NCBI GenBank assembly: GCA_020049335.1
Contig: JAIFKX010000244.1
Coordinates: forward strand, 1-39,946
Source: Paludibacter sp.
GTDB lineage: Bacteria; Bacteroidota; Bacteroidia; Bacteroidales; Paludibacteraceae
Length of the DNA stretch: 39,946 nt
Reading direction: 5' to 3'
The notes beneath the pieces are model-generated. The model was not told where the DNA came from. It did not search any database and saw only the letters and a list, made by a program, of their open reading frames with translations. Shown here one piece after another: positions 35,314-39,944 of the stretch. Within the stretch, counting starts at the first letter, position 1; the number at the start of each line of letters is the position of its first letter. The position numbers were made by a program, and so were the translations under genes.

Positions 35314-35568
35314 ATGATTGCAGCATCCATATCAGATTTCAGAAAAGATATTAAATCTTATCTTGACAGAGTTACAAATAATTTCGAAACACTTATCATT
35401 AACAGAGGAAAAGATAATGGTGTTGTTGTTATTTCATTAGAAGAATATAATTCATTAAATGCCACACAGCACGAATTATCATCAAAGTCGAATGAACAAA
35501 GACTTGATTCGGCTATTGAAAAATTAAAATCAGGTGCTATGTTTAGTAAAGAACTTATTGAAAAATGA
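35314..35568 (+). CDS. YefM/Phd-family antitoxin
   Basis: An 84-residue antitoxin. The N-terminus MIAASISDFRKDIKSYLDRV and the following strand pair VVVISLEEYNSL are the Phd/YefM DNA-binding fold. The polar C-terminal 30 residues are the likely toxin-wrapping tail. Its stop overlaps the toxin start by 4 bases (ATGA at 35565), the usual coupling in such pairs. With the toxin it should bind the phased GTAC sites just upstream and repress its own promoter. Confidence 0.94.
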   Translation: MIAASISDFRKDIKSYLDRVTNNFETLIINRGKDNGVVVISLEEYNSLNATQHELSSKSNEQRLDSAIEKLKSGAMFSKELIEK

Positions 35569-35822
35569 AGTATATTTTTGTTGACGAATCGTGGGAAGAT
35601 TATTTGTACTGGCAATCGACAGATAAAAAGATGCTAAAGCGTATAAATGAGTTGCTAAAAGATATTTCGCGTCATTCTTTTTCGGGAATTGGAAAACCAG
35701 AACCGCTTAAGTTTAAATACAAGGGTTTTTGGTCGCGCAGAATAAACGACGAACATCGTATAATATATGAGGTGAAAGAAGATGCGATTTTAATTGCAAA
35801 ATGTCGTTTTCATTACGATTAA
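35565..35822 (+). CDS. yoeB: YoeB-family mRNA interferase toxin
   Basis: A ribosome-dependent mRNA endonuclease of 85 residues, the normal YoeB length. The catalytic residues known from E. coli YoeB fall at the same numbers here: Glu46 (in GKPEPLK), Arg65 (in NDEHR), His83 and Tyr84 (in RFHYD). The N-terminal helix pair KYIFVDESWEDYLYW is typical of the family. The toxin therefore looks intact. It follows the antitoxin with a 4-base overlap, and no terminator is evident before the pyrB leader promoter. Confidence 0.96.
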   Translation: MKYIFVDESWEDYLYWQSTDKKMLKRINELLKDISRHSFSGIGKPEPLKFKYKGFWSRRINDEHRIIYEVKEDAILIAKCRFHYD

Positions 35823-35860: not shown

Positions 35861-35868
35861 TATCTTTG
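35861..35868 (+). promoter_or_regulatory. -7 promoter box for the pyrB leader
   Basis: TATCTTTG matches TAnnTTTG exactly, 38 bases past the toxin stop and 12 before the leader ORF. It predicts transcription starting just before 35881. Confidence 0.6.
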
Positions 35869-35880
35869 TATCCGAAAAAT

Positions 35881-35979
35881 ATGAAAAAAATCAATACAAA
35901 ATATTTTTTCGAGCAGTGCAACTTTCAGCAAATAAGTTGCTTGGACGAATTGCCTTTAAATTTACGTAAACCAATATAA
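35881..35979 (+). CDS. putative pyrB leader peptide (32 aa)
   Basis: The ATG at 35881 opens a 32-codon frame ([13 protein letters not shown]..., ending LRKPI) right after a -7 box. It carries a run of six T (TATTTTTT, about 35902-35909), which on RNA would be a U-rich pause site, then a 7-bp hairpin (GCAACTT 35918-35924 with AAGTTGC 35934-35940). The stop TAA (35977-35979) lies in the 5' arm of an intrinsic terminator. A ribosome reaching the stop would cover that arm and keep the terminator open. This matches the E. coli pyrBI leader logic. Translation is not proven. The same frame is open upstream to 35794, but the promoter lies between. Confidence 0.6.
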
Positions 35980-36007
35980 ATCAGGAAGATTTGTGTTGGT
36001 TTTTTTT
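35971..36007 (+). terminator. intrinsic terminator / attenuator in the pyrB leader
   Basis: CCAATATAAATC (35971-35982) pairs with GATTTGTGTTGG (35988-35999), 12 bp with two G-U pairs, 5-base loop AGGAA, followed by eight T (36000-36007). The leader ORF stop codon is in the left arm, and pyrB starts 58 bases after the T-run. Confidence 0.85.
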
Positions 36008-36065
36008 AGTTCCTAACCTTATTTTGGGGACAAAGAAAAAAGAAAAGATTATCAGAAATAATACC

Positions 36066-36968
36066 ATGAGTAAAAACAGTTTAGTGTCCATCTCCGATTA
36101 CAGCAAGGAAGAAATTCTTTCGATACTTTTATCGGCGGCAGATTTTGAAGCCAATCCCAATCGAAAAACTTTAGACGGAAAGGTAATTGCTACTTTATTT
36201 TTTGAGCCATCAACACGTACACGTTTGAGTTTCGAAACAGCAGTTATTCGTCTTGGAGGCTCCATTATCGGTTTTTCGGATGCTGCCACCAGTAGTTCGT
36301 CGAAGGGTGAAACGCTAAACGACACCATCCACATGGTAAGTTGCTATGCCGATGCGATTGTTATGCGTCATCCACTCGATGGTGCTGCTCGGTACGCCTC
36401 TGAAATATCCCCTGTGCCTATTATTAATGCAGGCGACGGTTCGAATCAGCATCCTTCGCAAACCTTGCTCGATTTGTATTCGATACTTAAAACGCAAGGA
36501 ACGCTCGAAAATTTAACAATATGCCTTGTCGGCGATTTAAAATATGGTCGCACCGTACATTCGTTATTGATGGCGATGTCGCATTTCAATCCAACTTTTA
36601 AATTTATTGCACCCGACGAATTGAAAATGCCCGAAGAATATAAGGTATTTTGTAGGAAAAATGGTATTAAATTTACGGAGATAGCAGATTTAAACGAAAG
36701 TTTTAATGATGCAGACATTCTATATATGACACGTGTGCAAAAAGAACGATTTCAGGATTTAATGGAATACGAACGAGTTAAAAATGTATATACACTTAAA
36801 AATGATATGCTTACAAAGTCGAAACCGAATTTACGCATTCTACATCCACTTCCTCGAGTAAACGAAATAGACCCCGATGTTGATAAAAATGAAAAGGCTT
36901 ATTACTTTAAGCAGGCACAAAATGGTTTATATGTAAGGCAAGCTATTATGTGTAAAATGTTGAATTGA
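36066..36968 (+). CDS. pyrB: aspartate carbamoyltransferase, catalytic subunit
   Basis: Condenses carbamoyl phosphate and aspartate, the first committed step of pyrimidine synthesis. From the ATG at 36066 the protein has 301 residues ([14 protein letters not shown]...). The carbamoyl-phosphate site [13 protein letters not shown] is at residues 45-57, SSSKGE holds the loop lysine, and [10 protein letters not shown] is near residue 130. The aspartate site lies near [10 protein letters not shown]. The frame is open upstream to 35991, but that part is the T-run and leader. PyrI follows 65 bases later, so this is the regulated dodecameric type. Confidence 0.97.
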
Positions 36969-37033: not shown

Positions 37034-37489
37034 ATGGAAAAAAAATTAAAAGTAGCAGCGCTAAGAGATGGAACAGTGATTGATCATATTCCATCGGATA
37101 AACTCTTTAAAGTAGTGCATATTCTGCATTTAGATACCTGTTTGAATCAGATTACATTGGCCAATAATCTCGAAAGTAAAAAGATTGGCTCAAAAGGATT
37201 GGTGAAGATTGCCGATAGAGCGCTTGCAGTAAACGAAACAAATAAATTGGCACTTATTTGCCCCGATGCTAAAATAAACATTATCAGAGACTTTGAGGTG
37301 GTTGAGAAGCGTCCGCTTATTTTGCCCGATGAGATTCGCGAGGTAATACAATGTGCAAATCCAAATTGCATTACGAATCACCAGCCTATTCAAACGAGTT
37401 TTTATGTATTGAAAAATGCTGATTCCACAATGTTGAAATGTCGCTATTGTGAACGCGAAGTAAAAGTAGAAGACGTGAAGTTAAAATGA
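37034..37489 (+). CDS. pyrI: aspartate carbamoyltransferase, regulatory subunit
   Basis: Binds nucleotides as feedback effectors and zinc to dock onto PyrB. 151 residues, normal length. The N-terminal allosteric domain includes KVAALRDGTVIDHIPSDK. The zinc site is Cys107-x4-Cys112 and Cys136-x2-Cys139. It lies 65 bases after pyrB, with a spacer made of AATTCG-like words, and is probably on the same transcript. All zinc residues are intact, so allosteric control is expected. Confidence 0.96.
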   Translation: MEKKLKVAALRDGTVIDHIPSDKLFKVVHILHLDTCLNQITLANNLESKKIGSKGLVKIADRALAVNETNKLALICPDAKINIIRDFEVVEKRPLILPDEIREVIQCANPNCITNHQPIQTSFYVLKNADSTMLKCRYCEREVKVEDVKLK

Positions 37490-37531
37490 TGTGTTGATGA
37501 AAAAATGATATGAAAATGCGATAATTTGAAA

Positions 37532-39151
37532 ATGAAGCGGATAAAAGTATTTATATCAAGTGTACAGAGCGAGTTCTCGACTGAAAGAGAGACGCTTTAT
37601 AGGCATCTCGAAACAGACCCATTCCTAAAGGTTTATTTTGAGCCTATACTATTTGAAAAAATGCCAGCATCCTGCAAATCTGCCGAAGAACTTTATTTAG
37701 AGGGAGTTAAAAGTGCTGATGTTTTTGTTATTTTGTTGGGAAATGAATATGGAACTATAAATTCGGCAGGTATTTCGGCAACCGAACTTGAGTTTGACAC
37801 GGCTTTGGAGCATAATATTGATGCTTTTGCTTTTATTAAAGAAAAACCTTTAGGAACTATTCACGCAAAAGAAAAGGCTTTATTAAGTAAGGTAGAAAAT
37901 CATGTAACATATAAACGCTTCGACGAAACATTCGATTTGGTACAAGAAGTAAACAGATCGTTTGTAGCTCATTTACAGCAAATTGGTTATTTACTAACCA
38001 CCGCTTTTGATGCTACAATGCATCCGAATGCTATTTTGAGTGAAATTGATACCGAATTGGTATATAATTTTTTGGATATTGCGGGCTCAAGGCGCAATTT
38101 CCCTTTTCGTAGAGGAAGTTCTATTAAAAAAGTTTTAACACATTTGAATTTATTGTCGGAAAACGAAAAAATTGGAAATAGTGCATTGCTTGCATTTACT
38201 TCAAATCCACAGAGATATTTTCCGACAGCTATTGTTAAATGTGCTCATTTTCATGGATATAATGTGGAAAAACCAATTCCTAACCATCAAATTTTTAAAG
38301 GAACTGTTTTTGAGCAAATATCTGAGGCTGTAGATTTTGTATTAGCAAAAATTGACGTATCGGTAGGTACACGTGATAAATCTATTCAAGCTCCCATAGC
38401 TTACGAAATTCCTCGTGCAGTAATTACTGAAGTTATTGTAAATGCAGTAGCTCATCGCGATTATTGCAGCAATGGAAGTGTTGAAGTTTGGTTGTTTAAA
38501 GATAGATTAGAAGTTCGAAATCCGGGACATTTACCCAAGGAATTGAGCCTTGAAAAGCTCGAACATGACCATGGCTCTTATCCCTATAATCCGAATTTAG
38601 CAGAGATACTTTATCAGACAGGATTGATTGAAAGATTTGGGACAGGAACAGCTGAAATTTTTCGTTTAACAGAACACTTAGGATTACAAAAACCAGACTT
38701 CCATTCGAACGAAGGATTTAAAGTGATAATCTGGAGAAAGTCTCATAATCAAGATGTTAAATCAGGTTTTACCGCACATGATACCGCACATGATACCGCA
38801 CATGATACCGCACATGATACCGCACATGATACCGCACATGATACCGTACATGATACCGCACATGATGCCCTATCAGAAATAGTATTTTTGAGCCTTTCGG
38901 AGTTAACAGATAGAGTAGTTTTGATTCTAAAAAATGAAATGAGTAGAGAGGAATTGATGGATAAATTAGATTTAAAACATCGTCAGAATTTTGCATTAAA
39001 TTACTTAGAGCCTTCATTAAAATTGGGATTTGTAGAGATGACAATTCCAAGTAAGCCCAAAAGCAAACTTCAAAAATATAAACTCACTTCAAAGGGACTA
39101 AAATTGCAGAAAAAGCTTAAAAATGAATACAAGTCGAACCAAGAAATATAA
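37532..39151 (+). CDS. DUF4062 / HATPase_c_4 protein with tetrapeptide repeats
   Basis: A 539-residue protein from ATG 37532. Residues 2-85 are DUF4062 (KVFISSVQSEFSTERETL, then ADVFVILLGNEYG). A linker of the kind found in AlbA_2/HATPase regulators follows, and at about 293-380 a HATPase_c_4 domain with the N box VITEVIVNAVAHRDY, NPGHLP and RFGTGTAEI. Residues 414-445 are eight near-identical TAHD tetrapeptides (one TVHD), coded by a 12-bp tandem repeat. The C-terminal 94 residues look like a winged helix (LSELTDRVVLILKNEMSREELMDKL). Related AlbA/HATPase proteins are putative transcriptional regulators; DUF4062 also occurs in NLR-like and defence proteins. Its role here is unknown. It begins 42 bases after pyrI. 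Confidence 0.85.
   Translation: MKRIKVFISSVQSEFSTERETLYRHLETDPFLKVYFEPILFEKMPASCKSAEELYLEGVKSADVFVILLGNEYGTINSAGISATELEFDTALEHNIDAFAFIKEKPLGTIHAKEKALLSKVENHVTYKRFDETFDLVQEVNRSFVAHLQQIGYLLTTAFDATMHPNAILSEIDTELVYNFLDIAGSRRNFPFRRGSSIKKVLTHLNLLSENEKIGNSALLAFTSNPQRYFPTAIVKCAHFHGYNVEKPIPNHQIFKGTVFEQISEAVDFVLAKIDVSVGTRDKSIQAPIAYEIPRAVITEVIVNAVAHRDYCSNGSVEVWLFKDRLEVRNPGHLPKELSLEKLEHDHGSYPYNPNLAEILYQTGLIERFGTGTAEIFRLTEHLGLQKPDFHSNEGFKVIIWRKSHNQDVKSGFTAHDTAHDTAHDTAHDTAHDTAHDTVHDTAHDALSEIVFLSLSELTDRVVLILKNEMSREELMDKLDLKHRQNFALNYLEPSLKLGFVEMTIPSKPKSKLQKYKLTSKGLKLQKKLKNEYKSNQEI
38771..38866 (+). repeat. 12-bp tandem repeat coding for TAHD units, eight copies
   Basis: Eight units of ACCGCACATGAT start at 38771 and follow without gaps to 38866. 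The seventh has ACCGTACATGAT (TVHD); the rest are identical. Each unit is four codons, so gain or loss keeps the frame. It lies between the HATPase and the C-terminal winged-helix-like domain. Confidence 0.97.
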
Positions 39152-39806: not shown

Positions 39807-39944
39807 TCTGCCCCTAACCCCTAAAGGGGAATAAGAAATACTAGCATTAATAATTCCAAAAATAAATAATCAATATTTTTGAATACTATAAAAAATATAT
39901 CAGACAAAACTAACTTCAGCTCCCCTTTAGGGGTTGGGGGCAGA
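39807..39944. repeat. 24-bp near-perfect inverted repeat enclosing 90 AT-rich bases
   Basis: The left arm (39807-39830, core CCCCTAACCCCTAAAGGGG) and right arm (39921-39944, core CCCCTTTAGGGGTTGGGGG) are complementary except for one position. The enclosed 90 bases have no open frame. GC-rich arms of this type recur in Bacteroidota intergenic DNA and resemble REP/MITE-like elements. The right arm runs to the window edge, so the element may extend further. Confidence 0.8.

What the first reader, a model, noticed from the sequence alone, without database searches (positions are those of the whole stretch)
35861..36066. Attenuator-like leader before pyrB with the architecture of E. coli pyrBI
In sequence order: a -7 box (35861-35868), a 32-codon ORF (35881-35979), a U-rich stretch of six T, a 7-bp hairpin, and an intrinsic terminator (12-bp stem, eight T) whose left arm contains the ORF's stop codon, 58 bases before pyrB. 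In E. coli pyrBI, tight coupling of a translating ribosome to RNA polymerase prevents the terminator when UTP is scarce. The same logic fits here: UTP shortage would slow polymerase at the U-run and hairpin, let the ribosome catch up and cover the terminator arm. I know of no well-described example in Bacteroidota. The peptide sequence itself looks unrelated to E. coli PyrL, so this may be convergent.
Basis: partly seen in the sequence, partly recalled or inferred. Interest (0 to 1): 0.72.

Follow-up and report, generated by a model that had tools for sequence, protein, structure and literature searches.

The report
Ribosome-controlled pyrB attenuator in Bacteroidales
In front of the pyrimidine-synthesis genes pyrBI this bacterium, like many of its near relatives, carries a tiny decoy gene that runs into a transcription stop signal, so that a ribosome close behind RNA polymerase can probably keep the stop signal from forming; E. 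coli uses the same trick with an unrelated sequence.

Summary
A -7 box, a 32-codon ORF starting 12 nt after it, six T, a 7-bp hairpin and a terminator holding the ORF's stop codon precede pyrBI. In the genus 40 of 44 genomes with pyrB keep box, ORF and terminator. Over 98 Bacteroidales leaders with terminator, box and ATG, the ORF reaches the hairpin in 89 (88 with the box fixed beforehand), against about 25 expected; none of 41 other intergenic terminators has the layout. Peptide, frame through the hairpin and stop position vary; what stays is a ribosome delivered to the hairpin, which begins a median 87 nt after the ATG (E. coli pyrL: 88). carA and pyrE (nine genomes) and the window's pyrK lack it. 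I conclude translation-coupled attenuation of the pyrBI type, unrelated in sequence to E. coli PyrL. UTP as signal is inferred: the U-run is not general and stem uridines equal those of other terminators. The predicted 5' UTR is only about 5 nt, unusual for Bacteroidota. Three Bacteroides records and 52 of 60 deeper Bacteroidales lack it. Nothing was tested experimentally.

The parts
35861..35868 (+). -7 promoter box TATCTTTG (TAnnTTTG type)
   Evidence: read; the box lies at a median 104 nt before the terminator in 89 leaders; placement -12 to -5 for this motif taken from PMC9723704 (passages)
35873..35880 (+). predicted 5' UTR of the leader transcript (about 8 nt)
   Evidence: inference from the box position; start not measured. 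Across 89 leaders median predicted 5' UTR 5 nt, 77 of 89 under 10 nt
35881..35979 (+). leader ORF, 32 codons, stop codon 35977-35979
   Evidence: openness kept in relatives; only weak constraint on the peptide
35904..35909 (+). run of six T (U-rich stretch)
   Evidence: six or more T in a row in 24 of 42 close relatives, not general outside them
35918..35940 (+). small hairpin (7-bp stem, 9-nt loop), possible pause hairpin
   Evidence: five consensus pairs kept in 32-37 of 37 genus leaders with a few two-sided changes
35968..36007 (+). intrinsic terminator (stem 35968-35982/35988-36002, T8 36000-36007)
   Evidence: conserved stem in the genus; its core pattern occurs once in the window's genome
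36066..36968 (+). pyrB, aspartate carbamoyltransferase catalytic chain (regulated gene)
   Evidence: Pfam OTCace_N and OTCace
37034..37489 (+). pyrI, regulatory chain
   Evidence: Pfam PyrI and PyrI_C

Best explanation
The leader is a translation-coupled transcription attenuator of pyrBI that works like E. coli pyrBI. Transcription starts at about 35873, so the leader ORF begins about 8 nt from the 5' end. By default RNA polymerase outruns the first ribosome, the terminator at 35968-36007 folds, and transcription ends before pyrB. When polymerase is slowed in the leader, most likely by UTP shortage at the U-rich stretch and the small hairpin, the ribosome catches up. While it translates the last codons or sits on the stop codon inside the left arm, the terminator cannot fold and polymerase reads into pyrBI. 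The peptide itself has no function; only the ribosome's position matters. Shown by sequence comparison: the parts, their conservation, the nearly free peptide and frame, the absence before carA, pyrE and pyrK. Inferred: start site, termination, translation of the ORF, and UTP as the signal.
For: Genus: 40 of 44 keep box, ORF and terminator together; in the other four no terminator was seen. Wider: ORF reaches the hairpin in 89 of 98 leaders against 26.2 expected from shuffles; with the box fixed beforehand 88 of 98 against 25.2; in 40 leaders less than 65% alike 33 against 10.6, or 32 against 9.9 with the fixed box; 92 of all 220 upstream regions once 27 first not counted are added. Controls: 2 of 109 other terminators with the loose layout, 0 of 109 tight, against 18 and 16 of 20 before pyrB; 0 of 41 intergenic ones. 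In 42 close leaders the ORF crosses the hairpin in all three frames (32, 6, 4), and stops at or beyond its first base in 40 of 42. Peptide weakly constrained (omega 0.69 over all pairs and 0.83 over nearest pairs in frame, 1.02-1.18 in the other frames; 22 leaders). ATG to hairpin median 87 nt, E. coli 88. No terminator within 200 nt before carA (9 of 9 genomes) or pyrE (9 of 9), none before pyrK. Upstream neighbours fall into 14 groups in 31 loci, nine on the other strand. In E. coli, moving a stop codon from 28 to 5 bp before a terminator cut termination from about 90% to under 10%, while terminators in the first 100 bp of a coding region work (PMC4824070, abstract, one section and passages).
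Against: No transcript, ribosome or growth data. The T fraction of the ORF is only slightly above that of other gene starts (0.29 against 0.27, p 0.014; 26 leaders, 474 starts) and the longest T-run likewise (4.04 against 3.48, p 0.03); stem uridines equal controls. The nearest relative's ORF stops 12 nt before the hairpin. Nine of 98 leaders have no ORF reaching the hairpin by my rule. In a deeper sample only 8 of 60 have the layout. Leaders are related by descent, so the P values overstate independence. How tightly ribosome and polymerase are coupled in Bacteroidota was not tested.
Confidence: 0.72

Rival explanations
1. Same ribosome-occludes-terminator device, but the signal is not UTP. 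It reads general translation capacity or initiation rate on a nearly leaderless mRNA, tying pyrimidine synthesis to ribosome activity.
For: The constant features are box, ATG about 9 nt later, open ORF and hairpin; U-rich features are not constant. Predicted 5' UTR under 10 nt in 77 of 89, against about 3.7% of B. thetaiotaomicron 5' UTRs (PMC7366714, passages).
Against: Found before pyrB, not before carA, pyrE or pyrK; E. coli precedent for UTP at this very operon.
Confidence: 0.2
2. The terminator belongs to the upstream gene and the ORF is a chance reading frame.
For: yoeB ends 145 nt before the terminator on the same strand.
Against: A promoter box lies between; upstream neighbours differ between relatives and nine of 31 are on the other strand (mechanical ORFs, some may be spurious); ORF openness far above shuffles.
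Confidence: 0.04
3. Classical amino-acid attenuator or nascent-peptide sensor: specific codons or the peptide stall the ribosome.
For: The genus peptide shows some conservation (KYFFEQ...).
Against: No cognate codon run; peptides differ completely between families; no alternative structure competing with the terminator was predicted.
Confidence: 0.03
4. A true small protein is encoded and the overlap with a terminator is incidental.
For: An ORF is kept.
Against: Weak purifying selection, three frames used at the C-terminus, unrelated peptides in other families, no Pfam match.
Confidence: 0.03

Closest known systems
pyrL-pyrBI attenuator of Escherichia coli (UTP-sensitive, ribosome-coupled)
   Same: Same operon; short leader ORF entering an intrinsic terminator whose hairpin begins 87 nt (here) or 88 nt (E. 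coli) after the start codon; U-rich stretch before the terminator; no antiterminator predicted here.
   Different: No peptide similarity and different terminator sequence; here the stop lies in the left arm, in E. coli the ORF runs on to 3 nt before pyrB; predicted 5' UTR of about 8 nt here; U-run about 60 nt before the hairpin rather than about 25 (sequences); UTP response untested.
pyrE attenuator of E. coli (rph-pyrE)
   Same: Translation up to a terminator decides read-through (recalled; only the title of Bonekamp 1984 was seen in a reference list).
   Different: There the translated frame is a full upstream gene (recalled); here pyrE has no such element in nine genomes.
trp/his-type leader-peptide attenuators
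   Same: Short leader ORF plus terminator.
   Different: No cognate codon run and no mutually exclusive hairpins found here.
PyrR-regulated attenuators of Bacillus
   Same: Attenuation of pyr genes.
   Different: Protein-binding RNA elements without a leader ORF (recalled); no Rfam family reached its gathering score at the leader.

Membership tests
E. coli pyrBI-type (UTP-sensitive coupled) attenuator | Intrinsic terminator between promoter and pyrB | tested here: met
E. coli pyrBI-type (UTP-sensitive coupled) attenuator | Leader ORF whose translation brings a ribosome onto the terminator | tested here: met
   sequence level only:
E. coli pyrBI-type (UTP-sensitive coupled) attenuator | No competing antiterminator structure | tested here: met
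   predict separate hairpins; no search for suboptimal alternatives was made
E. coli pyrBI-type (UTP-sensitive coupled) attenuator | U-rich pause region between start codon and terminator | tested here: inconclusive
   T6 in the window; T5 or longer in 30 of 42 close relatives; only slight excess elsewhere
E. coli pyrBI-type (UTP-sensitive coupled) attenuator | Leader ORF reads through the terminator to just before pyrB, as pyrL does | tested here: not met
   window stop is in the left arm; reading beyond the hairpin seen in L003, L114, L046 and several Prolixibacteraceae
E. coli pyrBI-type (UTP-sensitive coupled) attenuator | Leader peptide homologous to PyrL | tested here: not met
   no alignment at E <= 100
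E. coli pyrBI-type (UTP-sensitive coupled) attenuator | Read-through rises when UTP falls, dependent on translation | not testable with these tools
   needs expression experiments
trp/his-type attenuator | Run of codons for the regulated amino acid | tested here: not met
   peptide; other peptides, by inspection
trp/his-type attenuator | Mutually exclusive terminator and antiterminator | tested here: not met

The most novel reading that the evidence does not exclude
Bacteroidales evolved a pyrBI attenuator independently of enterobacteria, and in a leaner form: a nearly leaderless mRNA whose ORF can be reached by a ribosome as soon as the start codon leaves polymerase, so that an early U-run and hairpin serve to load the ribosome rather than only to slow polymerase. 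The peptide is free to drift and the leader may shrink to 6-13 codons. It would be a leader-peptide attenuator working without Shine-Dalgarno initiation and a readout of transcription-translation coupling in this phylum.
Probability: 0.35. Interest if true: 0.72.

Novelty: new variant of a known kind. Interest (0 to 1): 0.58.

Why it matters
It would mean that one operon, pyrBI, acquired the same ribosome-based switch at least twice from unrelated sequence, and that ribosome-polymerase coupling tight enough to control a terminator exists in a phylum without classical Shine-Dalgarno initiation. It also gives a ready set of natural variants (early stop, stop in arm, stop in loop, read-through, possibly six-codon leaders) to test how close a ribosome must come to block a terminator. 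The three Bacteroides records examined lack the element, which may be why it has gone unnoticed.

Tried and rejected
UTP signature in the terminator: a first comparison gave more U in the right arm than in other hairpins (0.48 against 0.37, p 5e-4); many controls lay inside genes. With 41 intergenic controls the difference vanished (0.48 against 0.48, p 0.54). I dropped the claim.

Counting rule: one search counted a leader if any of its boxes gave a reaching ORF but took the expectation from one; 6 of 98 leaders have more than one candidate. With the box fixed beforehand the result holds: 88 of 98 against 25.2, and 85-88 under the three rules tried.

Leader ORF uridine content: slight excess only. 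Peptide conservation as evidence for a small protein: rejected. Terminator of the upstream gene: rejected. Reinitiation antenna as proposed in PMC4833913 (passages): the ORF ends 86 nt before pyrB, too far for that idea. Other pyr genes: no such leader before carA, pyrE, pyrK (one carA locus, L304, has a hairpin with T-run 232 nt upstream, above its promoter box). One search had read some of these loci in the wrong orientation and was replaced. Repeat element: the terminator core occurs once in the genome. A phylum-wide search returned mostly distant carbamoyltransferases; loci L188-L213 were left out. A -33 element was not convincing.

Rows dropped: of 299 loci, 245 had distinct upstreams of 200 nt or more without N; 193 of those passed 55% identity. 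The rest were phylum loci and pyrB loci judged on too short an alignment; the 27 pyrB loci not counted were examined (4 with a terminator, 3 with the architecture). L148 (only 140 nt upstream, no terminator seen), L125 (134 nt) and L159 (masked) are not in the count. The 60 loci are a choice from the 168 genomes, taken mostly in order of PyrB identity, not a random sample.

Full report
What is there. The coordinates of the finding are right. The order is: -7 box 35861-35868, ORF 35881-35979, T6 35904-35909, 7-bp hairpin 35918-35940, terminator 35968-36007 with the ORF's TAA at 35977-35979, pyrB at 36066, pyrI at 37034 (Pfam). In Flavobacterium psychrophilum the TAnnTTTG box lies at -12 to -5 (PMC9723704, passages). 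Applied here, transcription would start near 35873 and the 5' UTR would be about 8 nt. That start is a prediction.

Conservation in the genus. Of 48 genomes 44 have pyrB. In 40 of 44 the box, the terminator and an ORF that stops no more than 15 nt before the hairpin are all kept. In the other four (L019, L117, L148, L150) no terminator was seen (L148 shows only 140 nt); in L117, L148 and L150 a -7 box lies close before pyrB. I saw no genus member with the terminator but no ORF. In a close set of 42 leaders with the layout (PyrB at least 84% identical, a few from outside the genus) the stop falls 4-13 nt into the hairpin in 32, 18-19 nt in five, beyond it in three, and before it in two (L138 at -1; L031, the nearest relative, at -12). 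The hairpin is crossed in all three reading frames (32, 6 and 4 leaders). Codon-level constraint, measured on 22 leaders of equal length, is weak: omega about 0.69 over all pairs and 0.83 over nearest pairs in frame, 1.02-1.18 in the other frames. So the ORF is kept open but its peptide is nearly free.

Beyond the genus. Among 193 distinct upstream regions 116 have a terminator within 200 nt of pyrB, 98 of these also a -7 box and an ATG, and in 89 the ORF comes to within 15 nt of the hairpin or into it; shuffling the ORF gives 26.2. With the box chosen beforehand it is 88 against 25.2. Twenty-seven regions not counted there add 4 terminators and 3 such ORFs, in all 92 of 220. Thinned to 40 leaders less than 65% alike, 33 reach the hairpin against 10.6 expected, or 32 against 9.9 with the fixed box, P about 1e-14; shared descent makes this P too small. 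The peptides are unrelated between groups. By the family numbers, layouts of this kind lie in nine families (f1, f71, f79, f106, f113, f117, f123, f148, f151; rows), besides named Prolixibacteraceae records that may belong to one of these; outside f1 single leaders are not significant on their own. Among 60 further order members, 8 have the layout. The Bacteroides records L079, L081 and L084 have no terminator there. Sampling leans to near relatives, so these fractions are not prevalences.

Controls. Among other terminators in the window and in every second long locus of L031-L110, 2 of 109 fit the layout loosely and none tightly, against 18 and 16 of 20 before pyrB. Of the 41 that are intergenic none fits. 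Upstream neighbours in 31 loci fall into 14 groups, nine on the other strand (ORFs called mechanically). The terminator core is unique in the genome. carA and pyrE (nine genomes each) and the window's pyrK have no terminator within 200 nt upstream.

Structure. The genus alignment (37 leaders) folds into two separate hairpins, with no structure competing with the terminator (single sequence). The terminator stem keeps pairing in 34-37 of 37, mostly through U-G/U-A exchanges; the small hairpin pairs in 32-37 of 37 with a few two-sided changes. Pair counts lean towards the structure because it was predicted from the same alignment.

Mechanism. Hairpins begin a median 87 nt after the ATG; in E. 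coli pyrL it is 88. In E. coli, terminators in the first 100 bp of a coding region usually work because translation is not yet coupled, and a stop codon 5 bp before a terminator cuts termination from about 90% at 28 bp to under 10% (PMC4824070; abstract, one section and passages read). The same paper notes that the pyrBI terminator is not repressed at normal UTP, and PMC5021804 (passages) states that tight coupling over pyrL prevents the terminator. The Bacteroidales leaders fit this default-off design. The nearest relative's stop at -12 is borderline by the 10-15 nt figure in PMC4824070. UTP as the signal rests on the operon's identity, the T-run (six or more in 24 of 42 close relatives) and the E. 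coli precedent. It is not supported by stem composition.

Short 5' UTR. Predicted 5' UTRs are under 10 nt in 77 of 89 leaders, median 5. In B. thetaiotaomicron about 3.7% of 5' UTRs are that short (PMC7366714, passages). Early ribosome loading is therefore a plausible special feature; it is inference.

Novelty. Searches for pyrBI, pyrB, aspartate carbamoyltransferase, leader peptide, attenuation or coupling, several with Bacteroides or Bacteroidetes, listed no paper whose title or abstract start tells of a pyrB attenuator in this phylum; only open-licence papers are held. PMC7366714 mentions short ORFs reminiscent of attenuating leader peptides, and PMC9723704 suggests leader-peptide attenuation for amino-acid operons in a flavobacterium (passages). 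I call it a new variant of a known kind: it works like pyrBI attenuation, but sequence gives no sign of common descent with pyrL.

Noticed in passing
window 39818-39829 and 39922-39933: Palindrome CCCCTAAAGGGG in an inverted pair about 100 nt apart (expected 0.01 matches); it occurs in 23 of 319 loci (some of them copies of one genome), in L047, L049 and L051 as a pair between the attenuator and pyrB. Looks like a small mobile or REP-type element.
   Followed up: partly
window 35314-35822: A yefM-yoeB toxin-antitoxin pair lies directly upstream of the leader; in the nearest relative L031 the nearest long ORF is instead on the other strand 320 nt before pyrB.
   Followed up: partly
window 36003-36040: A second stem downstream of the terminator pairs with its U-tract in the single-sequence fold; in relatives this stretch resembles the CCCCTAAAGGGG element, so it may be a decayed copy.
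   Followed up: no
window 37526-39151: ORF with DUF4062, HATPase_c_4 and Fic-like_C domains and about eight HDTA-type tandem repeats near 38754-38882.
   Followed up: no
L169, L173, L024, L157, L022: Very short leader ORFs (6-13 codons) stopping 8-14 nt before a terminator ahead of pyrB: possible minimal forms, individually not beyond chance.
   Followed up: partly
L031: A record titled Porphyromonas cangingivalis (a metagenome assembly) holds the nearest relative of this Paludibacter-like window; the title may be a wrong name.
   Followed up: no
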